DNA from: Fomitopsis serialis
Taxonomy: Eukaryota; Basidiomycota; Agaricomycetes; Polyporales; Fomitopsidaceae
Direction of reading: 5' to 3'
Assembly (NCBI RefSeq): GCF_022376445.1
Contig: NW_025955250.1
Coordinates: 1-49,840 of the forward strand
Length of the DNA stretch: 49,840 nucleotides
Of the stretch, positions 1-47,766 are shown piece by piece (within the stretch, counting starts at the first letter, position 1; every line of letters begins with the position of its first letter). Below the pieces are notes generated by a model. It made no database searches. It was not told the origin of the DNA and was given only the letters and a program-made list of their open reading frames with translations. The position numbers and the translations under genes are program-made.

Positions 1-3000
1 CCCGATATCACCACAGTGTACCCCTCATGAACATCCATCTTGCTCCCCGTGTAATGAGGAATTCAAGGATAATGCTGCGCTAAACGAGGTGCGGTGCATC
101 AATCACCTTGCGTTGGGTGACTCAACAGTGATTGTTCCGTGGTTGTAGCACATGAAGGAAGCTCACAGCTGGACAATCTGCTCGTGCAGTTTGATGGTCA
201 TTCGCAGCTCTTTAAAGGAGCATTTCAGTCGTTCCGATTTTCACCCGTCATGTGCAATTTGTTTTGAATCGTTCGAGCACCGTGACGAACTCTCAGAGGT
301 TGGACATCAGGTTTTGACGTCGATGCACAGAACACTCATCTCCGACTCCTCGTCCAGCACGCCCACTCTTCAGGCCATGTACAGCCTCCACGTCCGCGAG
401 GTGCAGTCACAGCCAAGGAGGGACGGCACTGCAATCAATGCGGCTGTCAATTCGGGTCTAAGGCCGACCTCACCAAGCATCTCAGGGACCCTACCGCTCA
501 CCCACGATGCTGGCAATGTGGTATGGTATACTCGGATAGGACGACACTCCGTAAGGTATGCATTCGGGCGATGCGTTGAACCCGGGCGGTGACCGATACC
601 GTCTCTTTTCTCGGCTGTGCCAGCATACAGAGCGGTTTCCACGAACTCAGTCTTTTGCAAATGTCACTTCCGAGAACTCAAATGTTAATTATTGCGGTCT
701 GGACAATACACTGGAGTCGAGTGTTCAAGTTGCTTCGGCATCCGACGTGACTGTAGAGACGTCCACTCCTTCTGTAAGCCAATCAAAATACTGTCTTGCT
801 ATGACTTGACGCTGATAGAGTGCTACAGCTCATAGCTACCCCGGAACCAGCGCCCGCCACTTCAGGTTCTCAGTCAAACGATGGTAAGCACATAATTAGA
901 CGTTGTACAATGAACAAACAATCTCAAGTCGCGGCAACGACAGTCACTGAGTCATCTGTAAACCCCACGGTGACCCCTAGTGACCAGTCCGTTGTTACTG
1001 AGACGACACCAATGCCTTCCCAGGCAGCCACGGCTTCAAACGTATCTTGGCTCACAAGGGGCGCTGCAAAGGAGTGGTGCGACAGTGTTGAATGCGAACT
1101 TTGTAGAGTGTGGTATGTTGGCGATGGCGAGCTAGTTCGCCATTACCTCCGTTCCGTGTACCATCCCAGATGTCAGCCTTGCAGTGTCACGTTCGAGGGC
1201 CCCTCTGAACACAATAAGGTGAGTTTCGCAGTTCTTCATGGGATGACTTCTCAATTCGAATGTCGATTCGGATAGCACATGGTATTGGTCCATGGCGCCA
1301 ACGGGTGCAAGGGATGCTATCGCATATTCCCAACGGAAGCCGCCCTGCAGAAGCATTACAAGGACATACCTGATCATCGGAAGGGTCCTGATTCTGTGCC
1401 CGAGCACAGCATATTACCTGTACCAGAGGTGAGATCTTCGTGAATGACGATTTGATGTGCATTGACGATGATATTGTGCTAACCGAATGTTGTGGCTCCG
1501 CTGCCTCATCAGGTGAGCGAGCCCTCACTACCTCTGAAGTCTTCAGCTCATCTCATGTCGAGCGGAGGTAAGTTCCGTTTCGAAGTTCTTCGCTAACCCG
1601 TGGAACTGACTAATTCATACGGCGTTAAACTAGCAACCACGGAGTCATTTGCGAACAAAACGCTCAGTAGCAGTGATACACGCGCTACTGTTGACTTGAA
1701 CTCATCGTCTACTACCCAGCCGTGCATGGCATCCAACAGCATCGCTTCCGCTAGTACCGGAGGCTCCAGAAGCGAGCAGGATATGAGTGTGCGATGCGAA
1801 TTCTGCAAGACCCAGTTTGGCTGCGAAAGCGACTTACTCGACCATTATTTGCATTCTGTGTTCCATCCCACGTGTCAACATTGCAAAGTCGGATTCAAGG
1901 ATCGATCGTCGCTCCGAGAGGCGAGTTCATTGCTCTCAAAGAACGTCCAGTATTGACTCGGGATATTGCATTTAGCACGTATTTTCTGTCCATGATACTA
2001 CGGGATGCAAACATTGCTACGTAGTGTTCAATACGACGCAAGAGCTGCAACAGCATTATCAAAGTGTTCCTTTGCATTCGCCTGGAGAGGCGGCAGCCAG
2101 CAAGTCTGAGAGTGTTGCATCGTCAGAGGTGCTATTTGGTTTCTTTTCGATAGTCCCAGCTATGTCTCATCACAAGAGAACGACAGATCAAAGCGGCTTT
2201 GCAGTCGCCCAAGGGAATTAAATTCCGACGAAGGAGAGGTAAATGGCACTGCGACCTATGCGATACGAACTTCATAAAGAAGAGATCGCTTGCGCGCCAT
2301 AACCTCATGCATCCGTGTTGCACCATTTGCCAGATAGGCATTGCTGACGACGAGCTTTCCAAGGAGGTGCGACACTACTCTAGCAGCCAGTTGTCACTCT
2401 AATGCGCCATAAGCACATGGCGAAGGTTCATCCATCGTTGATAAATCAGTCGCTAGCTCAGCCCGCATCGGCTCTACCTCGTCCAACCGTGAGCAAGCAG
2501 CTATTACTGGCAAATCGATTATTAATTTGACTTACTGTTCACCTTAACCTCTAGGACGTTTCTGACCCATTAATCATCACCAAACCGCTGAAGCCCTTGG
2601 ACGAAACTTGCGAACCCATGGAGGACCCAGTCCACGAGATTGAGGAACTGCCATTGGCAGCGTCGGATTCGGGCAAAAAGGCAGTGGAAGCGCACGCACC
2701 TCGGTCCGAGTCGCCCATCTCTGCGACAGGCATATCGGAGAATGAAGACGGGAGAGACCCTCCCAGCGAACGTGAGTGCCCCCTCGAAACGACACTACTT
2801 GCTCGAGTTGTTCATGCAGGTCGACTCACAGAAATAATTGGAATCCAGTTTCCTGTCGACGTCCCCCATACCGGAGATGTCAGATCCAGAGCCGTCCAAC
2901 AACTACAACAGCATGTAGTTGTTACGGTCCAGCCAACAGATGCCGTGGAAACAGTCGCCTCAGATGAGGCAGAGCCTATGTCTGTCGATCAGCATGTCGG

Positions 3001-3473
3001 CCGGGAGGAAGGAGAGGCCCTCGAAGGGGGAAAATGGGTACTTCCCGTTGATGGTACAGACAGTGAACGCGAGAACTTCAACTCAGGCGATGTGCATGCG
3101 ACACAGACTCAAGGTAAGCGGCGAGCAGTGATGTTTCAAGCTGTATCATCACTCACGAGTTCTGAGCATCCGATGCATCGTCGACACCACTATCAACGAC
3201 CCCTGTGCATACACCAGAGTCAGCGCCGCCGCAGAGTGTGTCGTGGCACTGCAGGAGCTGCCTAAAGAACCCGTGCGACGAGCCTACCGCGACGATGTGC
3301 GGGCATATATTCTGCTATAGGTGCGTCTGTCGTACACGCCATTGAAAATGGTGCATACAATGTTGATGGTGCGACGAAATCTGTATAGGTGCATCGTCCG
3401 TGAGATATCGGACAAGATGCAGTGCCCTGTATGTAACAGACTCTTCTTGCTGAGGCTGCACGCGACAGCATGA
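1..3473 (+). CDS. ZFR-A: multi-C2H2 zinc finger / RING protein, 5' truncated by window edge
   Basis: Last part of a many-exon gene; the first exon is cut. Exons read: 2-88, 149-298, 358-555, 624-773, about 830-881, about 942-1218, 1276-1428, 1513-1567, 1634-1920, 1976-2128, 2205-2366, 2414-2488, 2555 to about 3113 (possible 48 nt intron 2772-2819), about 3168-3320, 3389-3473. It encodes C2H2 fingers such as CNQCGCQF..HPRCWQC, VECELCRVWY..HYLRS..HPRC and RCEFCKTQF..HPTCQHC. Most finger exons open with a His codon that supplies the His pair of the previous finger (HMKEAH, HMVLVH, HVFSVH, HMAKVH). An acidic/Ser-rich linker leads to a C-terminal RING: CRSC, PCDEPTATMCGHIFC, then CPVC, split by an intron, ending LFLLRLHATA. 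Likely a nuclear E3 ubiquitin ligase (inference). One intron has a GC donor at 1921. Two exons (1276-1428 and 1976-2128) have equal length and the same layout, so an internal duplication is likely. Confidence 0.8.
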
Positions 3474-4019: not shown

Positions 4020-7000
4020 ATGTCTGGGACGTTCACCTGTCTCGACTGTGGTGAAGGCTTCCGCGATGTCTCTGCCTTGTGGAGCCACAGCAAGGCAAGG
4101 CAACACGGCCTTTATCAAGGTCGGAAACCTTTCAGCTTCCCCCATGACAACAAGAGCTACGATCCGGGTGATCTCAGCTACACACTAGCTCAAAAGCATG
4201 ACTCGTACCAAGTCGACATGCCGTACGGTCGGACTACGGTGTTTCTTCCTGCCTCAAGGACTGCCGTGGCGTCAGTGTCGGCATTAAATGATGCAGCTGC
4301 TGCAGGCGCAGCGAGGGCAACGTTTGACACAGCTCCCGCGACCACATACCCGCCTGGCGACCCAGCCATGGAGTGCAGATGTGAAATCTGTGATCTGTCC
4401 TTCCGTTCGGATAATGAGCTCAACACTCATTACAAGTGGTCTCCCGTACACCCATCCTGCGGGAAGTGTGCGAAATGTTTTCGAGATAAGAGTCAACTTT
4501 CCCGGGTGAGTCGCAACATGAGCTTCCCTAGTCGTGTTGACTCAGTGACCTCGTTCGTCGGCGCTAGCATCTGCAAACTGCGCATGCGTGTGACATCTGC
4601 GTCTGCGGAGTAATCTTCGAAATCAACCATGCGTCCGTGCACTACAAGGCATCTTCGTGTCATCCCAAGTGCATCAATTGTGGGGCAGCGTTCAAGGACG
4701 CTCCCGCGTTGAATGTGGTGAGCTTGATATTTACCGTTCCGGTCGTCTACCCTGATCGTCTCGTAGCACTACAGATCCTCCCATTATGATCATCATTGTC
4801 TTCGCTGCGACCTCTGGTACCCTACGAAGCCAGATCTACAGCGGCATTTCTTCGAGTGCATTGCACATCCTCGCTGCTTTCAGTGCAAGGAAGGTTTCGT
4901 CGGACATGTAGAGTACTTTCAGGTCTGTGGCGACCTCAGAGACTCAAATTCCCCAATCACGGACTGATACATGCTGATTTAGCATGTGGCTGCGGTACAT
5001 AACTCGAAGGTAACGACGACCATAGCACCCACGAAGGTAGATCCATTACCCGAAGCAAACCTGCGAGCATATGCATTGATGAGACTGTCTTTACAGGTCG
5101 TTGCGATTTCCAAACCTCCTCAGAAGAACAAACAGGAGAAGCCCCCACCGTATCGCTGCGACCACTGTAATCTAGGCTTCAAGAAGTCGAAGCAGCTCAA
5201 GAAACATAACCGCCAGACCCCTCTGCACCCGTGCTGTACCCAATGCAATAAAGCTTACGCAATGTACGGGCCTTATGAGCGTGTAAGTCAGTGTCGCCAC
5301 TATCGCGATCCGTTCGCTCACATTGCATTCCGTCACACAGCATATGATTAACAAACATCCACGGGCCGAGATACTGCCCAAGCTTCCTCCACGACCGTCA
5401 CCGCAGGTGCGCGACAATCGTATATGTCCAACTGTTTGTCGTTGGTACTGATCAAGTTCTTCGTTCGGAACTCTAGGCCGTACAGGCTGGTCCATCGACC
5501 AACGTCCAACAATCAGAGCCGCTAGGCGAGTCTCCGAAACTCCCGGAGAGGGATGATTATTCTAACATTGGCTGCTAGCCCCTGGTGCCGGCTCACAGAC
5601 AGCGGGAACGGGCGCGTCTGCATCGAACTGCGAGATAGCTACGGCGGTGCCCGAAGTAGTCGACGGAGGTGACCCTCCGGTGGAGTGTGAGTGTCGCTCA
5701 GCACTATTTGTTTGTATCCCTTACGTGGGTCATCTTCTCAGCATCGGTGGAACCTCAGGTGCTAGTCGATGCTCCGATTAGAGACGCCGAGGCCACCGCG
5801 AGTGCGGTCTATCATCTTCCGGCAGCGGACAATGCGCGGCCGTCTGGCGAGCCCGGTCAGGATGCTGGCACGTTGACTCAAACAATGTTCGAACAAGAGC
5901 ATCCCGTCAAGACGCCTGAGGTTAATGTCAGTGCTGTCTTGTAGCGTTGGGCGAATTGCCTACTGACGGGCAGTATATATACAGCTTGGGAGCGATACGG
6001 GATCAGTCATATCATTCGACTACCTCTCCTCCACCAGTTCGGAATCGGACGCCTTATTTGCACAAGCTCGGGCTTTACCACACCCTTCGAACACAGCCGT
6101 GCAATGCGAAAATGCTGACGAGCGCGAAGATGAGGCTTCCTCCGACTTGTACGATTACATCCAGTGAGCTTTTACGCGAACTACTACCTATCCTCGCGAT
6201 AACTGACCCCTCTTGCAGTGCCCACGAGCGATCAACTGATGCCGACGCGCGGACGATTTACGAGCGACCTGACAGCGTAATCAGCTACGTTACAGAGACA
6301 GACGTAGATCTGAGTGTCCTGTCCGCCAGTTCCTCAGGGCAACCATCGGACTCCATTGCCACGCAGGCCTCTTCTTCGTCGAACAATGCAGCAAGGGACA
6401 TGAACGCGGAACAGCTTGACTATCCCAAGGAGACGCTGTCCGAGTCCTACGTCAGCGCACCGCTCTCTGATGCGTGCACCCGTGGCCTATCTACTCGTCT
6501 TGAAAGCATTGACATCAGCATGGAATCTGCCTCTCGTCCCGCAGCATCTCCATCGCTGATCGCATCTGACACGTCGGCGGATGCGCCGCCTGTCAGCACA
6601 GGACGAACCCGAGGCTCGACTTCATCGCGTTCTACAGTGTCGGAGGAAAGTAAGAGCCATCGTCCGCGTGAGCTGCTTCGTGCTACATACTAACTATTCC
6701 TGCGCCGTTCCATTTCAGTCTCCAGCGTCACGGAGTCCATAGCAACGAGCACAAGGAGATCAATACCTACTCCTTCGGACCCAGCCGCGAGCGCTCTCCC
6801 TAAAGGAAGGTCCACAGCCCCTGGCCCGTCCTGGCACTGTCGGAGTTGCGCAAAGGACCCGTGCGAGGATCCGACGGCAACACAGTGTGGGCACATCTTC
6901 TGCTACAAGTTCGTCGCGCCCTTGATCTCAGTATTTTTGCTGATACTGATGTACGAATGTGTAGGTGCATCGTCAAGGAGATCGCCGAGAGTATGAAGTG

Positions 7001-7046
7001 TCCGGTTTGCGACAAGCTGTTCCTCTTGCGGCTTCAAGCGTCTTGA
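4020..7046 (+). CDS. ZFR-B: multi-C2H2 zinc finger / RING protein
   Basis: Complete copy. The start at 4020 puts a typical finger at the N-terminus (MSGTFTCLDCGEGF, His pair H-x5-H); ZFR-E and ZFR-C start in the same way. Exons: 4020-4505, 4568-4717, 4767-4922, 4983-5282 (optional in-frame intron 5010-5096), 5341-5406, linker exons around 5579-5690, 5742-5925 and 5985-6163, then 6219-6649, 6719-6908, 6965-7046. Finger pairs have the layout C-x2-C-x12-H-x6-H-P-x-C-x2-C-x12, then an intron, then H-x4-H (HLQTAH, HYRSSH, HVAAVH, HMINKH). The linker carries an acidic EREDEASSD motif, ERPDSVISYVTETD at 6262-6303 and VSTGRTRGS. The RING (CRSC, PCEDPTATQCGHIFC, KC, CPVC) ends LFLLRLQAS. A K-rich stretch before the fourth finger may be a nuclear localisation signal. 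Splicing between 5407 and 5578 is unresolved: an exon opened at 5477 would meet an in-frame TAG at 5576-5578, so one intron 5407-5578 is preferred. Confidence 0.82.
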
Positions 7047-7130
7047 TCGGACGATTGCTGTGTGCATGACGTGGATCATGTGTACTATCCTACTCACTAC
7101 GTTCGCCCCTCTGACCCTGCGTCCGCAGCA
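6470..7130 (+). repeat. Left arm of inverted duplication (ZFR-B 3' end)
   Basis: This stretch, from the last linker exon through the RING exons, stop codon and about 80 bases of 3' UTR, is nearly repeated in inverted orientation in ZFR-D at about 12950-13600. The encoded linker runs (for example SIDISMESASRPAAS and DTSADAPPVSTGRTRGS) are identical. The similarity covers the introns and continues past the stop to ccctctgaccctgcgtccg, where it ends abruptly. Recent duplication or gene conversion is likely. Confidence 0.75.
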
Positions 7131-12949: not shown

Positions 12950-13600
12950 GGACGCAGGGTCAGAGGGACGAACACAGTGAGTAGGATAGTACACAAGATC
13001 CACGTCATATACACAGCATTCGTCCGATCAAGACGCCTGAAGTCGCAAGAGGAACAGCTTGTTGCAAACCGGACACTTCATACTCTTGGCGATCTCCTTT
13101 ACGATGCACCTACACATTCGTACATAAGTGTCAGCAAAACCACTGGGAGATCAAGGGCGCGACGAACTTGTAGCAGAAGATGTGCCCACACTGTGTTGCC
13201 GTAGGGTCCTCGCAAGGGTCCTTCCCGCAGCCCCGACAGTGCCAGGACAAACCAGGGTCTGCGGACCTGCCTTGATGGAGAGCGCCCGCAGTTGACTTCG
13301 AAGGAGAAGGGGTTGGTCTCTTCGTGCTCGAGGCTGAGACGAAGCGGCACAGAAACAGTTAGTATGTTGCACGAAGCAGCTCGTGAGGACCATGGTTCTT
13401 ACCGTCCTCCGACATTCTAGAACGCGATGAAGTCGAGCCTCGGGTTCGTCCTGTGCTGACAGGCGGCGCATCCGCCGACGTGTCAGACGCGATCAGCGAT
13501 GGAGATGCTGCGGGACGAGAGGCAGATTCCATGCTGATGTCAATGCTTTCAAGACGAGTAGATAGGCCACGGGTGCACGCATCAGAGGGCGGTGCGCTGA
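12950..13600 (-). repeat. Right arm of inverted duplication (ZFR-D 3' end)
   Basis: Reverse complement of the ZFR-B 3' part (6470-7130): linker exon, both RING exons with the intron between them, and about 80 bases of 3' UTR. The boundary on the UTR side is the same gacgcagggtcagaggg motif in both copies. The arms flank the DUF4336 pseudogene, the F-box gene and ZFR-C. Confidence 0.75.
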
Positions 13601-16600
13601 CACAGGACTGAGACACCGTGTCCTTGGGGTAGTCGACTTGTCTTGTGTCCATGACCTGCGTTGTATTGTTCGACGAAGAGACTTGAGTGACAGTGGAGTC
13701 CGATGGTCGCGCTGAGGAGCTGGCGGGCAGGACAGCCGAGTCTGCATCTGTCTCTGAGTAGTAGCTGATGACGCTATCAGGTCGCTCCTGAATCACACGC
13801 GCGTTGGCATCGGTCGATCGCTCGTCAGCACTACAAGAGCGGTCAACTATCGCGATGATAGGTAGTATCTCGCGTCAAAGCTCACTGGATGTCATCGCAC
13901 GCGTCGGAGGAAGCCTCCTCTTCGCGCTCGTCAGCATCTTCACACTGCACGGCTGTGTTCGAAGGGTGCGGTCGAGCCTGTTGTGCAACCAAGACGCCCG
14001 CCTCCGAACTGGCCCGGGTGGACGAGGAGTCGAGTTGTATGACCGATCCCGTATCGGTCTCAAGCTGTGAATACTGACCATCAATATATGATATATGACG
14101 ACAGGACTGCACTGACGTTAAACTTAGCCGGATGCCCTCGTTCGAGCATTGCCTGAGTCAGATTACCAGAATTGCGACCGGTCTCGCTAGACAGCCCCGC
14201 GTTGTCCGCTGCCTGAAGATCATGTATGACAGTCGCCGGGATCGCAGTGCGCATAGCCGGAGCATTAGCAGGGAGTTGAGATTCGGCCGTTGCTAAGGAA
14301 ACGATCTGCATGAGTAACACGAACACGTAGCAGCTCAGAGAGACTTGAATGTCCTCACATCCCTGCAAACAGTCTCCTCCAAGGACAACCTTCGGCTGCG
14401 ATGCAGCATGCGTTGTCTGAAGTCCAAATGCAGCGACACACTCGATCAGCAGTCGATGTCACATGGTCGAAACCTGTTATTACTCACCGGGGATGGGGAA
14501 AGCGGGAGGAGTGGGGGCCGCAACTTGGAGGACGGATGTATGGCCACCATATGCTGTAGGACAGAATGTCAATGAAAGCCTGCTACGGTAGTTCAGTCAT
14601 CGTACGCTAACGTAGCCCTCATATACCAGGAAGCCCTTTTGACAGAGGATGCAACGCGGGTGCAAAGGCGTCTCAAGATTGTGCTCCTTGAGCGCTAGCT
14701 CGGTTGCGAAACCTAAGTTGCAGTGGTCGCAACGATGCAATTCCACTTTCTTCTGTTGGTCTTCTCTTGGAGAGCGCGAATCCACATCGTTCTGCAGGCA
14801 GCCAAAATTTCAGGCCTTGTTAGCACAGTAGATATCCGACAAATATGGTATTGACGCCCCTACCTTTATGGCTGGTTCTGCCGGCATCTCCGGAGAGTCA
14901 TGCACTGCGACCAGATGCTACATAGATGAGCACGAATAAGTGTTCATGGACATTACAAGGCTTCAAGGTTGCCACATACCTCAAGGTAGTCCGCGTTCCG
15001 TGGAAATGCTTGCTTGCACTTCATGCACCGAGGAGGTGCCGCGGGAAAGCACTCGAAGAGATGTCGATGCAGATCTGGTTTTGTCGGATACCAGCGGTCG
15101 CATCGCAGACAACATTGGTCAGAGTGGGCGGATATTTGGTGCTACGCGGCAGTCAGCTGGGGTCACTGGAACGATATATAACCAGCTCACTTCAAGCAGT
15201 GCAGGAGCATCCTTGAATGCGGCTCCACAATCGGAGCACTCTGGGTGACATGAAGATGCCTTGTAGTGTGCGGCTGCCCTATCGAGTTCGACGATTACTC
15301 CGCAACTACAGAAGATGCAACCATGTACGGCTTGAAGATGCTGTCAACGAGGTGAGCTCGACAGTCCGAACGATGATTGCGCTGTGACTCACCCGGGAAA
15401 GTTCGCCCTTATCATGAAAGGAATCTTCGCACCTAGCACATGAGGGATGCACCGGAGACGTCTTGTAGTGTGTGCTGGCCTCGTCTTCCGAGCTGAATGT
15501 GAGATTGCATATCAAACATCTGTGCTGAATAGCTGGGCCACCGTGCGCGGGAGTGGTCGTAGGAGAGGTCACAGACGCTGATACGGTGGCACTCGCTGAC
15601 GACGGTGAGCATTGGATGCCCTCTGCAACCTGGACGGGGTCGACGAGAAGTCCCATGGACATTTGAATGCGACTACTAGCGAGTGGCTGGTCCGGGACAT
15701 CCTAGAGTTGAAACCCAGTGAACAGTCCCATGAGAATTGAGACAATACTGTTATTGGTATTGCTCGCATTCACCGGTATACTATGTGGCAGCGACCCCAA
15801 GGAGAGCTGCGGTTTTGACTGGGACGTTGAATGAACCTTCGCCGTGTGCTGACAAGGAGGCCATAACGCATAAGAGTCCAACTATCAGTATCACAAAGCA
15901 TAGTGACATACCTTCTTGTAGTGCGTGGCACTAGGAAACCCCATGTTACAGATAGTGCAACACGGGTGCGAGGGTGTTACGAGGCTATGTTGACGCAGTG
16001 CCTTCAACTTGCTGAATCCTATATTACAGAGTTCGCAGCGCCATCCCGGCTGTTTCTTCTCCTTCTTCTCCTTCTTCTCCTTCTTCCCCTTCGGAGCTTG
16101 GATACGCGGGATATCCTGTGATGTCCTCGTGAGCAATTGTGTCCCACAAACACAGGAAGATATCAGATATACCTTCGGTGGTTGAAAATGCTCTTCAAGT
16201 ACAGGCTGACCCGTTCTGGTCATGCCAGGGGAGGTCAAAGGACAATTTTCATAATGCTGCTGCCCCTGCGCCCGACTGAACAGTCGGTAGCATTGCTTGC
16301 AACCGTTGAACCAATGAACCAAGATCATGTGCTGGCCGAATCTACCGTCTCAGAATAGCCATTTAACGACAGGGATCACATAACTCACCTTGTCCTGCGC
16401 TAACTGGTCCTTAAATCCGACATTGCATAGCCCACATTTGGGGTGAACCATGAAACTTGAACGCAAGTAGTGCACGCGTAGATCCCTCTCATATGTGAAC
16501 CACACCTCACACAACTCGCACTCCACGCCATTCCCCTTCATTTGCTGGATCCCCAAGCCCCCGATCTCGGACGGGCAGGAGGATGGTATGTCTTGATATG

Positions 16601-19516: not shown

Positions 19517-22349
19517 ATGCCTGCGACGTTCACTTGTGTCGACTGTGGCAAAGACTTCCGCGATGCCTCTGCATTGGAGAGCCACAGCAAGTCAAGGAAA
19601 TACGGCCTCGATCGTCAACCTTCCAGCTGTCCCCATGGCATTGGCAACAAGGGCTACGATTCGGCTGATCTCAGTCACATACTAGCCCAAAAGAACGACC
19701 GGTACAAAGTCGATATGCCGTATGATTGGAGTATCGTGTTTGTTCCTGCCTCGAAGGCTGCCGTCCCGTCGCCGACGGCCTCAAATGATGCTGCAGTTGC
19801 AGGCGCAGCGGGGGCAACGTTTGGCACAGCACCCGCGACCACGTCCCCGTCTAGCGACCCACCCATGGAGTGCAGATGCGCAATCTGCGATCTGTCCTTC
19901 TGTTCGGACGATGAACTCAACGCTCATTACAAGTGGTCTCCCATACACCCATTGTGTGGGAAGTGCGGGGATTACATTCAAGATAAGACTGAACTTTCCC
20001 GGGTGAGTTGCAACATGAGCATCCCTAGTCAGGTCGACTCAATGATCTCGTTGGTCGTCGCTAGCATATGCAAGTTACGCATGCGTGTGATGTATGTGTC
20101 TGCGGCGCGACTGTAAAAATCGACGACTTGTTCGTGCATTACAAGAGTTCTTCTTGTCACCCTAAGTGCTCCAGATGTGGCATCGCGTTCAGAGATGGTA
20201 CTGCGTTGCTCGAGGTAAGTCGAACACATGCACTATATATGCTGCTCTAAACTTCAACTCGGCAGCACGAGAAAACTCGCCACGTTCCTCAACATTGCGC
20301 GCTCTGTGATCTCTGGTTCGCGACGATGTCAGATCTTCAACGGCATCTCCACACATGCTTCTTACATCCGAACTGCCTTGAATGCCGGATGGGCTTTGTT
20401 GGGATCGTGGAATATCTTGAGGTTTGTGGTGACCTGAAATCATAGCATGGCGAGACACGAGCTCATTCATACTGAACTAGCATCTGGAAGCAGTGCACGA
20501 GCGTGCAGAAATGGGTGAAAAGGCAGAGAGTAAAAAGGCAGGTCATGGACTGAACTTCCGACGATGAAAAAAGACAGACTAACGAGACCCCTTTAGAAGC
20601 AGAAGAAGAAGAAGAAGAAACACTGTGACTACTGTAATATAACCTTCGCTGGGAAATCGGGCTTGAAAAAACACAACTATGAAACCCCTAAGCACCCGCG
20701 CTGCATCCCCTGCGAGAAGCGCTTCCTCAGATACGACGACTACAAGAACGTTAGCCCTGCTTTTGCAGTATCGCAATGCGTTCTCTGACACTGGCGTTCG
20801 ATACATAGCATATGGCGAGCAAACATCCTTCCGCTGCGTTACTACCAAGACTTCTCCCTCGTCCGTCGATGGTGAGGAACAGTTGTATCTGGCTGGTTGC
20901 ATATCGTCGGTACTGATCAATCATGTGATTGTGATGGGGCTAGGGGTTGTCTATGCCATCTTCCAGCGCGAAAGCATACGAGTCTCCGAAAGGGGGCGGC
21001 TATCCTGATACGGAGCTACTAGTACCCGGTCGAGGAACAGTGCATGTCGACGCGCCTACAACAGTCCCTTGTGCGACTACACCGGAACTCGAGGCTCGCG
21101 AGGAAGGAATTCTGCATACTGAACGTGAGCATTCTTCTCAGCTTCAACACTTTTTTGTCGCCGATCAGTGGCGTTTTCTCAGCGTCCGCAGAACGTCAAG
21201 ATCTCCTTACTAGCGAGGCCAAGGACGTCCAGTCCATTGCTGTGGCCCGTGATCTCCCAGAAATGGTCGGTGCGCCACCGTCGTCTCACAATGCCAATTT
21301 GGGCTGTAACACGTCGAACAAGACAATGTCAACATCAAGTGTTTTGACGGATAGTCATCGTCCTGATGTCAGTAGAGGTTTACAACCATCTGAAATCCGT
21401 CTGCTAATCTCCTTATAGGTCGAAGATGACACGGAGTCACTCATGTCACCTAACACCCTCTCGTCCACCAGTACGGAGGCGGATTTCATTGGCCAATTTC
21501 ATGCTCGACCACACCTTACGAAGTCTACGATGCAGCGTGAGGCGTCTGAGGAACGTGAAGAGGAGGCTGCCGCCGACGCCTACATTCATGTCGAGTGAGC
21601 TTTCATGATGCGGATTGCTGTCAATCTAGAAATAACCTTCCGTCTCGTAGCGCTGACGAGCAATCGACTGATGTCTACGCGCGGGCGATTTACGAGCGCC
21701 CCGACAGCGTCATCAGCTATGTCACCGAAACTGACATAGATGTAGAAGATCTGTCTGTCAGCTCTTCAATGCGACCACCAGACTCCGTTGTCACTCACGC
21801 CTCTTCTGTGTCGAATGCAAGCGAAGATCTTGATTCGACTTTCAGCGCAGCACGGATCGCGGCCGAAAAGCTTGACCCTCCCGAGAATACGGGTGTGCCG
21901 TCTGTCAGCACAGGGCGCACTCGCGGCTCGATCTCGTCAGAGTCGAGAGTGTCCGAAGAAGGTCAGAACAATTGTCTCCATTGACCGCCTGACGCTACAT
22001 ACTGATCTACTCCTGTATAACTGTCTCAGTCTCGAGCGTCACGGCGTCCATAGCCACCACAGGGCAGTCAGTCCCTACCCCTTCCAATCCTGCCATGAGT
22101 GTTCCTCTCCGAGGCAGCCACGTAGGCCCGTCCTGGCGCTGTCGAAGCTGCGGAAAGGATCCATGCGAGGACCCTACGGCCACCCAATGCGGGCACATCT
22201 TCTGCCATAGGTACGTCGCGGCTCCAATACAACTGTGATTGATGCGCTCATTCGCTTGTATGCGTAGCTGCATCGTGAAGGAGATCGCAGAGAACCTGCA
22301 ATGCCCCGTCTGCCACAAGCTCTTCCTTTTGAGGCTTCATGCGGGATGA
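19517..22349 (+). CDS. ZFR-E: multi-C2H2 zinc finger / RING protein
   Basis: Closest full paralogue of ZFR-B, with equal exon sizes: 19517-20002 (486 nt), 20065-20214 (150), 20266-20421 (156), 20481 onward (HLEAVH), an exon from 20597, 20809-20871 (HMASKHPSA), several Ser-rich exons, a RING exon ending at 22210, and 22268-22349. N-terminal finger MPATFTCVDCGKDF; later fingers CAICDLSF, CALCDLWF and HCDYCNITF with HPRCIPC. A run of AAG codons (KQKKKKKK) precedes the fourth finger and could be a nuclear signal. Linker motifs: EEREEEAAADAY, YERPDSVISYVTETD and PSVSTGRTRGS. RING: WRCRSCG, PCEDPTATQCGHIFC, CPVC, ending FLLRLHAG. The first exon's second finger reads CGDYIQDKTELSR, so its hydrophobic core residue is altered. 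Putative nuclear E3 ligase. Confidence 0.82.
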
Positions 22350-26466: not shown

Positions 26467-28871
26467 ATGCCCAAACTCAAGCCACACGTTTGTCCTGTTT
26501 GTACTCAGGCTTTCAGATCTCTGGATGGGCTACTACAACATGGGAACTCGATGAGACATGGTCTGATTGGTATTTACCATGCTTGCCCTGATTGCCAAAA
26601 GAACTTTCGGACGGCTGCAGCTCTGCAGAACCATTCGTCGGTCAAGAGACACGGCCCTTACGGGCCTGTGTTGCCCACAGTCGCCGCTTCTAGTACCCTT
26701 AGCGCGACGTCGGTCCCCGCGCAGGCCACGCCAGTAACAACATCTACAACTCTGCCGCCTTCCCCAGCTGCACAGTATAGATGCCAAGTCTGTACTCTAT
26801 CTTTCAACTCAGGGGCTGAGGTCAACGCCCACTATAAGGCCTCCTTCGTACATCCGTCCTGTAGCAAATGCGGCGAAGGTTTCAGGGACAACCAACGCCT
26901 TTCTCAGGTGGGTCATATCACGGTGATTGGAGGTCAATCGGGTTATCGACGTCGCTACATAGCATCTACAGGCCACCCATGTTACCGACACTATTGCTAA
27001 TCGGTCTGTAGCAACCGCCAAACCAGATGACCCTTCGACATCGTCGAGCCGTCGCATATGTTCAATGTGCTGGCTCACTTTCAAGGATGCCGCCAAGCTG
27101 TTTGAGGTACTAAGCGTTGCACGTACTATGGTTCCGCTGATGATCTGAACGCATGCTCTGCAGCACGAGAACACTGACCATCTCTGTGCCCGCTGCGATC
27201 AGTGGTTCTCAGGGCGGAGAGCTCTGCGGCAACACTTCAACGAGTCCTCGATGCATCCGAGCTGCTTCCATTGCCAGAACGGTTTCGCGGGGGATGTGGA
27301 GTTCTTCACGGTGTGTGGCGATCGTAACGACGACTGTCTCGACATAGGCGACTGATCCACGTCGATCTAGCATCTCGCCGAGGAACACGACATTCCGATA
27401 GCAGCTGAATTGGTCTCCACGGCGGGGTCATCGACTGAAGCTAATGGGGCTCCTAGCAGCCCGCCTCCTCCAGTTTATGAACAGCTGGAAAATGTCGAAG
27501 TACCTCAGATCGAGGTATGATATGTTATAACAATCTGGAGAGCTAGCGCACTGATCGTAATGTCTGTAGACCGCGATTTCCGAGGAACGTGAAGAGGACA
27601 CTGTCTCTGACAGTGACTACGAACACATTGGGTGAGTCTTGAAGCGGTATGTCGCCTATGCATGAACTGACCAACAGTCCTAATAGCCCTGACGAACGAT
27701 CGCCCGATGCCAACGTGTGGGAGATCCGGGAGAGACCAAGCAGCGTGCTCAGCTACGTCACAGCGATGGGATCAATCCCGGACGTCCAGTCTGACAGTGC
27801 CTCTGTTCAACCAAACGATGCTCCCGCGGCTCAAGCAGCCTCGACTCCCAGTATTGACTCGATCCCGGACTCTGAGGCAATGAGGGCCATTGAAACAGAG
27901 CGTGAATGGCTCCATAGCGCCAGAGACGCATCGTCCGAGGTACGTGTGCTATGCTGAGTCAACCAATCATACAGTTCACTAACAATTCCAAACGGATTCA
28001 AGCTCAGCCTCGACGACGACGACGACGACGACGATGCTGCTGCCGTGTTCCGTGCTCGACGTGCAGACTACATTGCCACTCTTGAGCAGACATGCGAGTC
28101 AACCGCGAAGGTTCCTCCCTCAGCACTCACCGTCCCTCCCTCTTATCCAGTCTTCGACCTTGAGAATGTTGTGCTTGGGCTGCAGTCCAAATGCGAGGAG
28201 GCAACGTCCCTGAATGAGGCCCTCCAGCGAGAGGCAGAGCAGAGGAACCAGGTCGCTGCACGGCCTGAGGCTGAGCTGCATGTGAACGCGCCGCGTTCGG
28301 ATGCCTGCACCCTTGGTCCGTCCACTCGACCTTCAAGTCCTGCTGCCACCGTGGACGTCGAGTCTCTCCGTGCTGGCTCGTTGTCGCCGATTGTGTCGGT
28401 TACATCAGAGGCGCCATCTGTGAGCACAGGGGGAACTCAGAGCTCGACTCCGGGGCATCCGAGAAGGTCGGAAGAAGGTAAGAGGATTGTCGTTGCGACA
28501 CTGCTGAGAGCTCCATGCTGATCCTCTTTCGCGTTACTCAATCTCATTACTCAACATGACGGTGTCCTTTGCCGCTACCACAGTGCTACCAGACCCCGCG
28601 CGTTCCGAGACCGCCGCCAGCGCCCCACCCGAAGCCAGGTCCAGTGCAGACCTATCCTGGCACTGTCGAAGTTGCGGTAAGGATCCGTGCGAGGATCCGA
28701 CAGCGACACAGTGCGGACATATCTTCTGCTACAAGTTCGTCGCACCCGTGATCTTTCATCAATTCTCGCTGATACTTACGAATGCGCAGGTGTATCGTGA
28801 AGGAGATCACCGAGAATATGCAGTGTCCGGTTTGCAACAAGCTATTCCTCTTGCGACTCCAGGCGTTTTGA
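26467..28871 (+). CDS. ZFR-G: shorter zinc finger / RING protein with Asp tract and predicted coiled coil
   Basis: Exons 26467-26907, 26963-27106, 27164-27310, about 27370-27512 (HLAEEH), acidic and Ser-rich exons, a coiled-coil exon from about 28003, a RING exon ending at 28734, and 28790-28871. Fingers: HVCPVCTQAFRSLDGLLQH, HACPDCQKNFRTAAALQNH, RCQVCTLSF with HPSCSKC, ICSMCWLTF, LCARCDQWF with HPSCFHC. The Lys-rich fourth-finger exon of B/E/F is absent, and the second module lacks its first finger. The linker has EEREEDTVSDSD and RERPSSVLSYVTA. An Asp run (DDDDDDDD) is followed by ENVVLGLQSKCEEATSLNEA, a heptad-like helix unique to this copy. RING: WHCRSCG, PCEDPTATQCGHIFC, CPVC, ending LFLLRLQAF. 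A RING with a coiled coil could form dimers, as in TRIM-type ligases (inference). Confidence 0.8.
28010..28034 (+). repeat. (GAC)n microsatellite coding an Asp tract in ZFR-G
   Basis: Eight consecutive GAC/GAT codons directly after the start of the coiled-coil exon. Not present in the other copies; a likely length-variable site. Confidence 0.85.
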
Positions 28872-32140: not shown

Positions 32141-34370
32141 ATGTCCGCCACTACTACCTGCGCCAGCGGTGACTCCGGTGTCCGTGAAGCGCAAGTGACT
32201 TTCGGAAGAGGAGATGATCACACGTGTAAGGTACGTGCAGACCACTGGTCTTGATTGTATGCTGTATACTGAGTTACTTCCTTCTGTCTAGGATAAACAC
32301 AAGGTCGACTCATTATCTGAATATGTCTGCTCCATGTGCGGCTTTTACATTGACATGTATCAACATCAAGCTCATAGTCATGTTACAGGTGTGCCGAACG
32401 TTTCAGTGATGCGCGCATCTTTGCGTCCGTACGTTGCCCGAAAGCCATTCTTCTGTTAATCGGTCCCAACCTGAGCGCCATAGCATGTCATCGCCGCGCA
32501 CTCCAAGCAAACCTGCGTATTCTGTAGTGAAGGATATTTCCAGCACGAATACCAGCAACATTTAATGGATTCCACGCTGCACCCAAAGTGTTCTCAGTGT
32601 AGGGTCGGATTTGAGGATCCTGTCCGATTTGACCAGGTCAGTGGAATTTTTCTTCCGTGAACTCTCGAATCATATCTCCGTCGCCAGCACCTTTGGTCAT
32701 GCCATCCGGAGGGAGGTTGCAAGACATGCAAGGTACATTGTCGTACTGCCACCAGCCTCCAGCAACACTATGGCGACTCGCCTTTCCATCCCGTTTGCAA
32801 CCATTGTGGGTCTGGCTTCGTTGACAGCCAGGTATTATCTCAGGTTCGTGGGCCTATTGCACTCACAAATTGAAGAACGAGGCTCTGAGGCAAACCTTGC
32901 AGCACGTAGATCACGTCCATCTCTACGATCAGGCGTCGTATTTCCAGCGGGGCCGGCCTGTCCTCCTCAAGGCCAGTGGTATGCGACCAGCCTGTATTAA
33001 TCTAGCCTGACGTATCAATCTGCAGGACGACGGTCTTCGCAGTGGTCATGTTGACACTCCGTCGGTAGTTGGCTCACTTTCACCTCAGACAGCCCACTCG
33101 GCGCACTCCTGGGTGCTGGCAGAGTCGCGATCTGAGTATCTGAATACGAGTGTCTCACCGGCGTTGATGATCCCGCCCAGCGGACGTGAACTAGACTCAC
33201 CGGAACAGCTACCCGCATTTACATCCTATCCCGTCAGATCTGCTCCGTCCCCACCTCCGCGGAACAGCACGCTGACCCCAATAACGGAGGCATCTTCAAT
33301 CGCTTCGAGGGCGTGCACTCCATTTTCGTACGAGCTGTCTAACCACGCTCCATGGCCGGCAGCTCCGACGGTCGCTCAATCAGGACAACCGTCGATGCCA
33401 ACAAGCTCTCTGCGATGTTCTGAATCCCCTTTTCCAATGTCACCTATTCTCAGGGCGACATCTCCGTCAGGGCCCCTGCAGTGCGGAGCACTTGCAGCAG
33501 CTCCTGCACTGCTTCCATCTAATTCGGGCGCATCGCCACTGTCTTCGTCTTCTATGAAGTCCGCAGATTCATTGACGAGCGGACCTCCGCCTCGGACCCC
33601 CGTACGTACATCTGTGTATTTTAAAGACGATGCTGAGCATCGCTCGCAGACCAGTTGGATAATGCCTGCATCTATGCCGGTAGATGAACAAGAGAAGCCC
33701 GATATACATAGCAGGTCCGGGAGAACGACGTCGTCAATGTATTCCCAGCAAGAAGGTGTGCGTAACGTTAGGTAAGTGCTTCACATATCTGTCGTGTGAT
33801 GTGTGTCGCTCATGAGTGATGTAAATTCTTGAGGTCTCCGAGAATAGGTACAGACACGGAGACGGTCAGTAGCATCTCGGAATCGCTTCTATCGTCAGCA
33901 AGCGTCCATTCTCTTGCTCCTTCGTACATTCTTGAAGGTGGAAACGAAGCGCCCCTCGCCGGCGTGGCACGACCCACTCTCGCACCCAGTGACATAACGC
34001 AGCGCATATACGATCAACCCACCGAACCGCCCTCGCATGTCCGACACTCGGGTCCTTCGCAGCACCTCGAGTCGCCCTTCTCGAGCCGGCCCGGGGGACA
34101 TGACCGAGAGGTTCCTACCTCCTCCTTGCCACCGATCGCTCCACAGAAACTAGGGTCACTGCATTGCAGATTATGCATGCAGGATCCTTGTGACAAGCCG
34201 ACTGCGACGTTGTGCGGACACATCTTCTGTATGAAGTGCGTTCCTTGTACCAGATCGTGTCAGGCGTTCTCTGACGTTGACACACGTCCAGGTGCATCAG
34301 TCAAACAATCGTGCAAGATTCTCAATGCCCTGTTTGCAAGAGGGCGATATTGATTCCTCTCGACGTTTAG
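32141..34370 (+). CDS. ZFR-H: divergent zinc finger / RING protein
   Basis: Most diverged member. Start MSATTTCASGDSG at 32141; exon 2 carries CSMCGFYIDMYQHQAHS. Half-finger exons follow: HVIAAHSKQTCVFC with HPKCSQCRVGF, HLWSCHPEGGCKTCKVH with HPVCNHCGSGF, HVDHVHLYDQ. A long Ser/Pro-rich linker (about 33030-33770 and 33834 on) lacks a clear ERPxSVxSYVT motif. The RING is LHCRLCM, PCDKPTATLCGHIFC, MK, intron 34236-34291, CISQTIVQDSQCPVC, ending AILIPLDV instead of FLLRL. Between exon 2 and the next half-finger (CAERFSDARIFAS) the frame does not join with any obvious splice site (about 32375-32430), so there is a frameshift, a hidden small intron, or a missed exon. Probably the same protein class; activity uncertain. 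Confidence 0.7.
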
Positions 34371-38964: not shown

Positions 38965-38973
38965 ATCTGATAA
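38965..38973. promoter_or_regulatory. Iron-responsive GATA factor site 2 (ATCTGATAA)
   Basis: Second exact match, inside the palindrome ttatctgataa, followed by a C-run. Central in the divergent promoter, 267 bases before the FET3 start. Confidence 0.75.
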
Positions 38974-39059
38974 CCCCCCTCCGGATGAAGCCTTGGCGCG
39001 GCACCAGGCTCACGGGCGCCAAGATGAGGGCTGCCGATGATGCCAGGGCATCGCGTCTT

Positions 39060-39068
39060 ATCAGATAA
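39060..39068. promoter_or_regulatory. Iron-responsive GATA factor site 3 (ATCAGATAA)
   Basis: Third exact match (cttatcagataaaattta), 172 bases before the FET3 start codon. Confidence 0.75.
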
Positions 39069-39239
39069 AATTTATGTACGTCGTTAGCTCACTGCACCGT
39101 GACAGGAACTTGGTGCTCCCGCTCACGATCGCAGAAGCCGCCAGGTCAGATCATCCGAGCGGTTCGACGCGCGCACGTAAAAGGCGTGAGCCACTTCCGC
39201 GAAGTTGTCCCGGTCCCCCCATCCGTACGACCGTCCACG

Positions 39240-45502: not shown

Positions 45503-47766
45503 CTACGTCGACTCAACGTACAACCTCAGCAAGAACATCTTCTTGCAAACAGGGCACGTCATGCCTGTCGAGAGCTCCTTAACAATACACCTGCCAGAGC
45601 CTGATGAGCCAACGACACGATCACCCGCAACAGCGAGAACGTACTGATGACAAAATATGTGCCCACACATAGTCGCCGTAGGCTCGTCGCACGGGTCCTT
45701 CAAGCATGACCTGCAGTGCCAAGAAACAGCGGTCGGAATCGCAGGCTTCACCGGGGACGCGACTTGGGTTGGAGTCACAGTTGTGGCCGGGGAAGTTACA
45801 GACGCCTCCTGTGACACTGCAATACATGTGTTAGACGGCTCGTGTCACTGTTTCGGTGCTTGTGCTGAGATCCTACCTTCCGAAGGGGCCTTGGACGACG
45901 GAGCAGTGGTGTCACGCCGTCGACCGACGCCGGAGGCAATGGAGGGTGACCGCGACCTCATGTCTCTCACAACCTGCTGCACGATCCTGGGCGATACCGA
46001 TGTGACTTCGTCAGCGTCGACTCGGCTCTCGGCGGCGGATGCATACTGGGGCGGAGCTTGCTTGATAGACGCATGTTCGCTGACGTACGACAACGCTGAC
46101 GGCGCGCGTTCGAGTTGAGGGCGGCCAAGTGGTACCTGAATGGTGCGTATCTGCGGCGTTTCCATCGGAGTGATCGTATTCGCTGAGCTTGACACTGGCG
46201 TATACTGGTCGGCCAAGCTCGAAGCGTCCGTCAGCTCGAGGACCGCCGATGGTATGGTCGCTGCGCTCTGTGGAGGATCATGCGTCTCGCCGGCCTCGCT
46301 GCGCCTCGTAAATATAAGTGTGGGTGTTTAGCAACTGCTGCGTACCTCATGTAGTCGTAGTGGGTGTGAACGGGTGACTGAGGCGTGTCGATTGGATAGT
46401 CAGACCACGGCGCTGAGGCGCCATCGCCAGCTGGAGAGAAGAATCTATTGAGTACTGGCCATGACGCAGTCCATAGTGCGCGTACCCATAAACGCGGACG
46501 GAAGGCTGGGCTCTGAGGCGCGCCTAAAGGAGTATGATGATGAAGTGGCATCGCTTTGGGTCTGGTTGCTGTTATTAGCTGAATTTAGGGTAAAGTAATC
46601 TTTGTCACAAACCTTCAGCGAGAGCGCGCTACTCCGCGCCGAGGAAACCGAACCCGGCGTCGGACAGACGAGCGGGGTCGCTGGGAGCGACCGTGTCTCG
46701 AGGAAATCTTGCGGGGGTGTCTTGTGTCGTTCCTTCACAGCGTAACATAGAATGGCGACGGTGACGTGAGCGATGGCGCAATTTGGGTACATCTCCACTC
46801 ACCACTTCGACGTAGGATTCTTCACTGGACACCGGAGAAGCGACCTGCGCGGGCGCCGGGTGGACATCTGCCATGTGCTGGTCATACGAGACAAGGTTCA
46901 TTAGAAACATATAGAAACATCCTGCCACGTACTTACACGCTGGAAGGTCGTGTCGTCTGGGAACCCAATATTGCACGAACTGCAGTTCGGGTGGTTAGGA
47001 GAGTCCCTATAGTGGTCCTTCATGTGCTCAGTGGCCAAGAACGACTTCTTGCATGGTATACATTGGATAGCAGGCGCTTGCTCAGGGGTGTGCACAGCCG
47101 CATTGTGCTGCTCGCAGCTCAGCAGAGTCATGCATGGTAGCGATGCGATTAGCTCACCAACTGCAGGCCCGAGGCGGTTGCGAATCCTTTCTGGCACGCA
47201 TCGCACTTTGGATGCTGATCAGAATAATCATAATGCGCTTGAAGGTCCCAAGTGGCCTTCTTGCAGAGCACGCATTCGGCGGCTTGAACTGCTTTCTGCT
47301 TCTGTACGAAGGTCGATGTCGACGCTTCCGGCGCAGAGCCGGATGCAGTTGCCTGAGGCGGTGTGGCCTTGACTGACTGAGTAGCGACGGGTGTCACTAC
47401 TCGAGTTGGAGCCGGAGCCGGAGCCTGAACTGCTGTCTTTGTCCTGCCGCATTCTTTTTTAGCAGATGAGCCGAAGCTATGTGCTAGAGCGAGTACGTCA
47501 GGTTATTACATCGTCTAGGAATGAAGGCAACGCACTTGACTCAATGCAGTCAGGTCAATGAATGACTGTCCGCACCGACTGCAAGACGGATGCCTTGTCG
47601 ACTCCTGATAGTGAGCACTCAATAGAGGGGCAGAAGCGAATTTCAAGTTGCAGAGGACACATCTATGTACGCCAGGAGCAGAGTAAGAATGTCCTTTGTC
47701 CTTGCAGTGTTGTTGAAGTGCATTTTCTTTCGCGAATGCGCGACCGCACGATGAACAGTTTGGCAT
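45503..47766 (-). CDS. ZFR-I: zinc finger / RING protein
   Basis: Minus-strand copy, start MPNCSSCGRAFAKENALQQH at 47766 (an upstream in-frame ATG nine codons earlier is less typical of the family). Exon 1 has RCVLCNLKF with HPSCSRCGQSF and ends at LSQ before GTGCGT. Half-finger exons follow: HIASAH, an exon with CVLCKKATWDLQAHYDYSDQ and HPKCDACQKGF, HNAAVHTPEQ with CIPCKKSF and HPNCSSCNIGF, and HMADVHPAPAQV. The linker holds LERAPSALSYVSEH, a diverged form of the ERPxSVxSYVT motif. RING: WHCRSCLKDPCDEPTATMCGH, IFC, HQ, intron, CIVKELSTGMTCPVC, ending MFLLRLYVEST. The RING is nearest to that of ZFR-A at the other end of the window (both CLK-x-PCDEPTATMCGH). Putative nuclear E3 ligase. Confidence 0.8.

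What the first reader, a model, noticed from the sequence alone, without database searches (positions are those of the whole stretch)
1..47766. Phase-0 introns cut C2H2 fingers just before the His pair, making interchangeable half-finger exons
In eight ZFR copies about 30 internal exons begin with CAT/CAC directly after the acceptor, and in nearly all the first six residues read H-x4-H (HLQTAH, HYRSSH, HVAAVH, HMINKH, HMQVTH, HENTDH, HIASAH, HNAAVH, HLWSCH and others). The preceding exon ends C-x2-C-x3-F-x5-L-x2. Together they form a canonical C-x2-C-x12-H-x4-H finger split exactly before its first zinc-binding His. Exons are symmetric (0-0), and in B, E and F they have identical lengths (150 and 156 nt). 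Any exon can be skipped, duplicated or swapped and still make a complete finger with a hybrid partner. This would permit combinatorial finger arrays by splicing or recombination.
Basis: partly seen in the sequence, partly recalled or inferred. Interest (0 to 1): 0.9.

Follow-up and report, generated by a model that had tools for sequence, protein, structure and literature searches.

The report
Zinc-finger genes split at same seam
In a wood-rotting fungus, a cluster of ten copies of a zinc-finger/RING gene holds 30 fingers that are each cut at the same point by a short predicted intron, just before the first zinc-binding histidine; the layout likely lets finger arrays be joined or part-swapped by recombination without breaking a finger, yet the finger units have mostly kept their order across related fungi.

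Summary
The window (the whole contig C213 of Fomitopsis serialis) carries 30 C2H2 fingers cut by a 47-63 nt phase-0 intron between the C-x2-C-x12 half and the H-x4-H half; shuffled windows give 0.07 on average. Deposited models place four such junctions each in copies F and F*; two relatives on short contigs, likely cDNA, read across them uninterrupted. A structure model runs one continuous helix across each of four seams. In 26 of 30 units an unsplit finger precedes the split one, and 9 of 10 copies have a RING.

"Freely interchangeable" does not hold. Thirty-four units from nine arrays (three named genera and one unnamed sequence) sort by array position (3 label changes, the minimum; 12 or more in 2000 shuffles). 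In copy F only two of six array exons can be skipped alone without breaking a finger. Nothing here shows combinatorial splicing.

Recombination is supported. Copy DE reads as two arrays joined in frame, an order shared with Daedalea quercina. Copies C and F share a 5' part whose boundary is best placed 9 bases past a split-finger intron. Copy K lacks its array. I read it as a phase-0 two-finger exon, tandemly duplicated, in a fast-evolving C2H2-RING family: a new variant of a known kind.

The parts
1..760 (+). copy A, piece of a C2H2 array gene: 5' part cut by the contig end, no RING found behind it in the window; 2 split fingers
   Evidence: 99% identical to C13:212602-213356
89..148 (+). split-finger intron A1 (CSPC..NE | HMKEAH)
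299..357 (+). split-finger intron A2 (CAIC..SE | HAHSSGH, H-x5-H)
1090..3473 (+). copy B, C2H2 array (3 split fingers) with RING tail at 3241-3464; 5' end not set
1219..1275 (+). split-finger intron B1
1921..1975 (+). split-finger intron B2 (GC donor)
2367..2413 (+). split-finger intron B3 (position-4-type unit)
4020..7047 (+). copy C, C2H2 array (4 split fingers) + RING; allele of deposited B0H18DRAFT_952390
4506..4567 (+). split-finger intron C1; best C/F mosaic breakpoint lies at 4576, 9 nt past its acceptor
4718..4766 (+). split-finger intron C2
4923..4982 (+). split-finger intron C3
5283..5340 (+). split-finger intron C4
10891..12498 (+). copy K: 5' part and RING tail only, array region missing (counterpart of C 4347-5960)
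13031..16436 (-). copy DE: fused array with 6 split fingers (B-type, position-4-type, then positions 1-4) + RING; read as one gene; 5' end not set
   Evidence: colinear with Daedalea quercina P0011
16332..16388 (-). split-finger intron DE1
15849..15911 (-). split-finger intron DE2 (position-4-type unit)
15341..15392 (-). split-finger intron DE3 (position 1)
15142..15190 (-). split-finger intron DE4 (position 2)
14918..14979 (-). split-finger intron DE5 (position 3)
14554..14605 (-). split-finger intron DE6 (position 4)
19517..22349 (+). copy F = deposited B0H18DRAFT_1058858 (P0005), 12 exons, 4 split fingers + RING; no close allele on the fetched C13 stretch
20003..20064 (+). split-finger intron F1
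20215..20265 (+). split-finger intron F2
20422..20480 (+). split-finger intron F3
20750..20808 (+). split-finger intron F4
22825..25459 (+). copy G, array + RING; one junction with Tyr for the second His, one C-half frameshifted in this haplotype
23290..23342 (+). split-finger intron G1
23720..23771 (+). split-finger intron G3
26467..28865 (+). copy H, 3 split fingers + RING; unsplit finger of unit 2 lost
26908..26962 (+). split-finger intron H1
27107..27163 (+). split-finger intron H2
27311..27370 (+). split-finger intron H3
32381..34331 (+). copy I, 3 split fingers + RING; 5' end not set
32429..32483 (+). split-finger intron I1
32637..32687 (+). split-finger intron I2
32844..32902 (+). split-finger intron I3
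45518..47766 (-). copy J, 3 split fingers + RING; frame broken in its second exon in this haplotype relative to C13
47484..47535 (-). split-finger intron J1
47108..47157 (-). split-finger intron J2
46878..46936 (-). split-finger intron J3

Best explanation
The window holds a tandem cluster of C2H2-array/RING genes of the brown-rot fungus Fomitopsis serialis in which 30 zinc fingers are each cut by a short predicted phase-0 intron just before the first zinc-binding histidine, a layout that likely arose by tandem duplication of one two-finger exon. Shown by sequence and models: the module is an unsplit C-x2-C-x12-H-x6-H-type finger (26 of 30 units), P-x, then a C-half; after the intron the H-x4-H half opens the next exon, and splicing gives a finger with one continuous predicted helix. 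Shown: in the two deposited models that could be mapped, array introns are phase 0 while tail introns have mixed phases. Inferred: because the repeated unit starts and ends at the same phase and the same point of the fold, recombination inside these introns or at matching exon ends joins or part-swaps arrays without breaking a finger; the DE fusion, the C/F mosaic and the array-less copy K are read as products of recombination at this locus. Shown: units nevertheless keep their order (positions 1-4) across paralogues and genera, so the array is position-locked rather than a free deck of exons. Inferred: the proteins work as RING-type ubiquitin ligases whose finger arrays choose the target (nucleic acid or protein). 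No role for alternative splicing is seen.
For: 30 split fingers against 0.07 in shuffles and 0 in 20 other stretches of this genome; with a wider gap rule those 20 stretches give 48 regex-intact fingers and 1 split candidate without the finger's hydrophobic residues. None of the 6 intact finger patterns of the window is the second finger of a module. Deposited models P0005 and P0003 thread onto the DNA with all four split junctions phase 0-0. P0002 (760 aa, 3,633-base contig) and P0012 (570 aa, 2,129-base contig) read uninterrupted across 4 and 3 such junctions. AlphaFold model on 11 of the 14 proteins in hand: blocks 121-270 at pLDDT 82-94, helices 157-168, 207-217, 259-270 and (pLDDT 76-86) 329-339 each run across a seam; Foldseek hits with E<=0.001 include ZFP568, CTCF and PRDM9 arrays. 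RING above cut-off. Position lock: 34 units of 9 arrays, 3 changes, 12 or more in 2000 shuffles; clades 97/97, 99/97 and 98/96 for positions 2, 3 and 4. DE: nine exons, all multiples of 3, one open frame, colinear with Daedalea P0011 across the joint, 37.6% over 343 columns. C/F mosaic: exon 1 (from 4300) 52:13 and intron 1 16:2 F-like, exon 3 after its H-half 9:37, best breakpoint 4576, 0 of 20000 permutations. Tail patchwork.
Against: No RNA reads were seen; P0002 and P0012 are called cDNA by inference. Splice sites of the other window copies rest on my scan (for C also on the protein sequence P0001 of its allele). Intron sites could not be checked in any other species' DNA. Exon 2 of copy C is equidistant between the two parents (21:24), so the breakpoint could lie anywhere up to exon 3, and the direction of transfer is open. 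Only one exchange has a breakpoint near a seam; other significant ones (30 triples tested) and the tail patches lie elsewhere. Unsplit two-finger units of similar form exist in this genome (L008, L009), so it is open whether the intron was gained here or lost there. 4 of 30 units lack a clear unsplit finger. Ubiquitin-ligase activity and targets are untested.
Confidence: 0.72

Rival explanations
1. The half-finger exons serve combinatorial splicing: exons are skipped, or joined between copies, to make many finger arrays from one locus.
For: Module exons are 0-0 and a multiple of 3, and exons 2 and 3 can be removed leaving a complete hybrid finger. Tandem copies lie close together. Drosophila lola trans-splices zinc-finger exons (recalled; one search gave only a search listing).
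Against: In copy F only two of six array exons are neutral to skip alone. Units keep their position across genera, as if each had its own job. Introns of 47-63 nt point to intron-defined splicing (recalled); exon skipping is 1% of coding-region alternative events in S. commune (PMC5034255 passages). No isoform was found, but no RNA was searched; Rhodofomes models P0006/P0007 lack unit 3 but leave a C-half without its His pair.
Confidence: 0.05
2. The introns were inserted many times independently at the same finger point because the sequence there is a favoured insertion site.
For: 22 of 30 upstream exons end in G (9 GAG, 4 CAG, 3 AAG), close to a proto-splice site on the 5' side (recalled).
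Against: Downstream exons start with C (His codon), a poor match to the usual G after the site (recalled). In 26 of 30 units the preceding unsplit finger is read in one exon, while no module's second finger is among the window's 6 intact patterns. 20 other stretches show no split under the same rule. Duplication of one module explains all positions with one intron.
Confidence: 0.15
3. The cluster is an ordinary birth-and-death family in decay, and the exon layout has no consequence; mosaics are plain gene conversion between tandem repeats.
For: K lacks its array; G and J carry frame breaks here and A does on C13; tails show patchy non-allelic identity; F and F* stand in the same place but are as different as paralogues.
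Against: dN/dS of array units is 0.12-0.51 in 9 pairs, so these copies look constrained (the 0.51 rests on 3 changes, and several dS are saturated). The array order is conserved across genera, and the DE joint is in frame and conserved in Daedalea.
Confidence: 0.2

Closest known systems
Fungal C2H2 proteins with zf-C2H2, zf-C2H2_4 and zf-C2H2_jaz domains (Pfam PF00096, PF13894, PF12171)
   Same: C2H2 arrays, also in a Basidiomycota survey (PMC12295980, passages)
   Different: The survey passages seen speak of intron numbers and duplication modes, not of introns cutting each second finger at one point, nor of a RING tail
KRAB zinc-finger gene clusters of mammals
   Same: Tandem clusters with turnover (PMC2443715, abstract and passages), C2H2 arrays; ZFP568, CTCF and PRDM9 structures are among the best fold matches
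   Different: Finger modules lie all in one exon in the 8q24.3 cluster (PMC2865497 passage); here every second finger is split; a RING is present and no KRAB match was found in the parts scanned
Plant IDD (INDETERMINATE domain) genes
   Same: An intron splits a C2H2 finger: ZF4 in nearly all IDD genes, ZF2 also in maize ID1 and sorghum SbID (PMC1586020 passages)
   Different: One or two fixed introns per gene, not one repeated in every module
Drosophila lola
   Same: Zinc-finger exons behind exon joints (recalled; search listing only)
   Different: Alternative 3' exons with their own fingers and trans-splicing (recalled); no sign of either here
RING-type ubiquitin ligases (RNF4, TRIM21, BRE1)
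   Same: C3HC4 RING profile match
   Different: Here C-terminal behind a C2H2 array and a long low-confidence linker

Membership tests
C2H2 zinc finger | C-x2-4-C-x12-H-x3-5-H with beta-beta-alpha fold | tested here: met
   Pfam PF13894, PF00096 and PF12171 above cut-off on spliced copy C; beta-beta-alpha pattern in the model of copy F
C2H2 zinc finger | zinc binding by the two halves joined by splicing | not testable with these tools
   needs protein; the model only shows continuous helices
zf-C2H2_jaz (dsRNA-binding type) | match above curated cut-off | tested here: met
   PF12171 25.3 bits against 22.6, best stretch in unit 4
zf-C2H2_jaz (dsRNA-binding type) | binding of double-stranded RNA | not testable with these tools
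   no assay
RING ubiquitin ligase | C3HC4 RING domain | tested here: met
   PF13923 32.0 bits, PF14634 31.6 bits, both above cut-off
RING ubiquitin ligase | E2-dependent ubiquitin transfer | not testable with these tools
   no assay
KRAB-type clustered zinc-finger genes | finger array in one exon | tested here: not met
   array spread over six exons in P0005 and P0003
KRAB-type clustered zinc-finger genes | KRAB domain | tested here: not met
   no KRAB match in the spliced array or RING tail of copy C; the linker was not scanned
Exon-shuffled module family | symmetric-phase exon unit repeated in tandem | tested here: met
   array junctions phase 0; repeated module
Exon-shuffled module family | units exchanged between positions or genes | tested here: inconclusive
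   not between positions in 34 units; DE concatenation and C/F mosaic show joining and in-register exchange

The most novel reading that the evidence does not exclude
The seam is a built-in recombination joint: each split-finger intron sits exactly after the last DNA-contact residue of the helix, so the half that reads the target and the half that closes the zinc site travel on different exons, and this fungal family builds new target-reading arrays by joining and swapping arrays at these seams (DE, C/F) while position-specific units keep the result foldable.
Probability: 0.2. Interest if true: 0.75.

Novelty: new variant of a known kind. Interest (0 to 1): 0.5.

Why it matters
It suggests a route by which a multi-finger protein can grow that differs from the one-exon arrays of animal KRAB genes: an intron repeated at one point of the fold makes the repeat unit frame-neutral. 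It offers a natural test of whether exon boundaries inside a domain guide recombination, in a family with two haplotypes in one assembly and with relatives in several polypore genera. It also defines a C2H2-array/RING family, clustered at one locus of this genome, that looks like a fast-evolving set of ubiquitin ligases.

Tried and rejected
Single-sequence fold of P0005: useless, mean pLDDT 36. First homologue search with the copy C array alone found only its own allele; the profile of five paralogue sequences added P0002, P0003 and P0004, of which P0004, a C2H2 protein at 27% identity over 32%, was dropped; the RING region reached other genera. The structure alignment A4 used 11 of the 14 proteins in hand (P0004, P0006 and P0009 left out). 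My own gene finder over-split the tails and ran past some genes, so only array exons supported by motif or deposited models are used. P0001 could not be threaded onto the DNA with introns of 40-129 nt; its array junctions are read from the protein sequence only. Unit trees leave out rows without a clear unsplit finger: 26 of 30 window units entered. One search has 57 rows: 26 window units, 5 from C13, 25 found by regex in nine other proteins, and one typed unit of G. The label test used the 34 units of nine arrays with clear order; the other 23 rows (A, B, DE's first two units, H, I, J, P7, P9, P11, P12, P13) were not labelled, and P11 and DE, whose order differs, are told separately. Free shuffling between positions was considered and rejected. 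A claim of breakpoints clustering at seams was considered and dropped: one case near a seam is not a pattern. Literature: the searches listed no paper whose title or shown abstract describes this layout; one search found no paper holding both 'Fomitopsis serialis' and 'genome'; the library holds open-licence PMC papers only.
Full report
WHAT WAS CHECKED. The window is the whole contig C213 (49,840 bases) of a 66.2-Mb assembly. A deposited protein of Fomitopsis serialis (P0005) lies on a contig of exactly this length, and two others (P0001, P0003) on one of 609,855 bases, the length of C13, so the source is this polypore (taxonomy; brown rot is recalled). C13:212602-267526 carries the same cluster, which I take for the second haplotype.

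THE OBSERVATION. A scan for a C-half followed by a donor and an H-half behind an acceptor 44-70 nt on finds 30 split fingers in the window. The same rule gives 0.07 on average and at most 1 in 200 first-order Markov shuffles, and 0 in 20 other 10-kb stretches of the genome, 18 of them chosen for a zf-C2H2 hit and two for a weak module hit. With gaps up to 110 nt those 20 stretches give one split candidate, which lacks the finger's hydrophobic residues, and 48 regex-intact fingers, some of them chance matches. 29 of 30 H-halves are H-x4-H. Introns are 47-63 nt, 29 GT and 1 GC. The rule finds 31 on the 70-kb C13 stretch. The family looks confined to the locus: all 19 hits of the copy C exon query and all 30 of the copy I query lie on C13 or C213; the RING query and the made-up module query add only weaker hits elsewhere, to other RING genes and to two unsplit relatives on C79 and C10/C332. 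Those searches score only the best candidates.

GENE MODELS. Deposited models thread onto the DNA for copy F (P0005, 12 exons) and F* on C13 (P0003, 13 exons): every split junction is phase 0 on both sides, and the array introns are phase 0, while the tail introns have mixed phases. P0002 (jgi, contig of 3,633 bases, 74% to P0001) and P0012 (lgn, contig of 2,129 bases) read without a break across four and three such junctions. I take them for cDNA because short contigs of this kind are usually called without introns (recalled); this is inference.

ANATOMY. One module is an unsplit finger, mostly C-x2-C-x12-H-x6-H, then P-x, then the C-half; the H-x4-H half and a linker open the next exon. 26 of 30 window units show the unsplit finger clearly. 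Unit 2 has a C-x-C knuckle in its unsplit finger in most copies. One unsplit canonical finger precedes the array in C, G and J and two in H; in F the last His of that finger is Tyr. 9 of 10 copies have a RING; A, cut at the contig end, has none in the window. The linker inside a module is P-x, not the TGEKP type. In the 11-sequence AlphaFold model of copy F (mean pLDDT 53 over 726 residues, blocks 121-270 at 82-94, 321-340 at 76-86) the helices 157-168, 207-217, 259-270 and 329-339 run across the seams before H163, H213, H265 and H335. In the usual numbering the intron sits after helix position 6 (established knowledge of C2H2 fingers, recalled). Foldseek's top hits are ZFP568 and CTCF arrays, with PRDM9 at rank 13 (whole-chain TM-scores are low, 0.06-0.09 by query).

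ARE THE EXONS INTERCHANGEABLE? In a tree of 57 units, positions 2, 3 and 4 form clades with support 97/97, 99/97 and 98/96 that include units of Rhodofomes, Daedalea (position 4 only through the out-of-order unit of P0011), F. betulina (positions 2 and 3) and the unnamed P0002 (48 columns, many forks open, bootstrap not settled). With labels taken only from order within nine arrays (34 units; F. serialis, F. betulina, Rhodofomes, Daedalea, P0002), the tree needs 3 changes, the minimum for four states; shuffling order within arrays never gave fewer than 12 in 2000 tries. So these units likely stayed in register since before the genera split. In copy F only exons 2 and 3 can be skipped alone: the H-half of unit 3 sits in its own short exon (20481-20537), the next exon (20597-20749) holds only a C-half, the sixth (20809-20871) only an H-half, and the first has the start. 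The Rhodofomes models P0006 and P0007 lack unit 3 and leave a C-half without partner.

RECOMBINATION. (1) D' and E, at 16.4-13.0 kb, read as one gene: nine array exons, each a multiple of three, one open frame, colinear with Daedalea P0011 across the joint (37.6% over 343 columns). Its order is B-type, position-4-type, then positions 1-4; Daedalea P0011 has position-4-type, 1, 2, 3. Two arrays were likely joined in frame before the two lineages parted. (2) Copy C is F-like in exon 1 from 4300 on (52:13 informative sites) and intron 1 (16:2), mixed in exon 2 (21:24), and F*-like in intron 2 (3:18) and in exon 3 after its H-half (9:37); intron 3 is 10:16. The best breakpoint is 4576, 9 bases past the acceptor of the first split-finger intron; near-best points are 4570-4590; 0 of 20,000 permutations reach it. 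The direction is open. In a wider scan of coding sites in 30 triples, six had p of 0.0015 or less, with breakpoints also away from introns. (3) K (10,891-12,498) matches the 5' part and tail of C but lacks C 4347-5960, the array. (4) Between haplotypes the array of C is 99.6-100% identical per 500-base tile while its tail drops to 75-97% per 75-base step and matches F* (99-100% at 5875-6100) or DE (99-100% at 6475-6550) better than its allele. F and F* stand in the same place on the two haplotypes but are as different as paralogues (array dN 0.39, dS saturated), so they are paralogues or very old alleles.

SELECTION. Nei-Gojobori dN/dS over the array units is 0.12-0.51 in nine pairs (several dS values are saturated and the 0.51 rests on three changes). 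Nothing points to diversifying selection on the array as a whole; contact positions were not tested apart.

ORIGIN. One phase-0 exon with a half-finger at each end, duplicated in tandem, explains why the second finger of each module is split and the first is not. Repeated insertion is less likely: exons after the seam begin with a His codon, and none of the 20 other stretches sampled shows the split. Polarity is open, since unsplit units of similar form exist on C79 and C10 (L008, L009).

FUNCTION. RING plus finger array suggests a ubiquitin ligase that reads a target with its fingers; this is inferred. Combinatorial splicing is unlikely: in the mushroom S. commune exon skipping is 1% of coding-region alternative events (PMC5034255, passages).

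KNOWN OR NEW. Introns inside C2H2 fingers are known singly, as in plant IDD genes (PMC1586020, passages); a KRAB cluster keeps its fingers in one exon (PMC2865497, passage); a survey of basidiomycete C2H2 genes reports intron counts and tandem duplicates (PMC12295980, passages). The listings showed no description of a C2H2-RING family with every second finger split at one seam. I call it a new variant of a known kind.

Noticed in passing
window 36839-41630: Ferric iron permease (FTR1, -) and multicopper oxidase (+) lie near each other inside the cluster, between copies I and J; Pfam PF03239 and PF07731, resembling the fungal high-affinity iron-uptake pair (recalled).
   Followed up: partly
window 42953-43600: Root UVB sensitive family protein, C-terminal domain (PF24160).
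   Followed up: no
window 5501-29500 and 32001-33500 versus C13: Many 500-base tiles here match C13 at only 73-95% or only through a paralogue, or not at all, while 33.5-49.5 kb is 95-100% identical: a local divergence peak over the array genes.
   Followed up: partly
window 4568-4717 and counterparts: The unsplit finger of unit 2 has a C-x-C knuckle instead of C-x2-C in most copies, also in Rhodofomes, Daedalea and F. betulina proteins; its zinc site may be unusual.
   Followed up: no
window 7501-10000: Five 500-base tiles without a match on the fetched C13 stretch; a 517-codon open frame (9198-10751) begins here and has no Pfam hit at 0.001.
   Followed up: no
L008 4548-5369 and L009 4898-5530: Open frames elsewhere in the genome with a similar two-finger spacing but unsplit fingers.
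   Followed up: partly
C13:213357-216567: About 3.2 kb present between the matches to copies A and B on C13 and absent at window position 754-756; a second stretch of about 3.2 kb (C13:217290-220454) lies opposite window 1475-1660.
   Followed up: no
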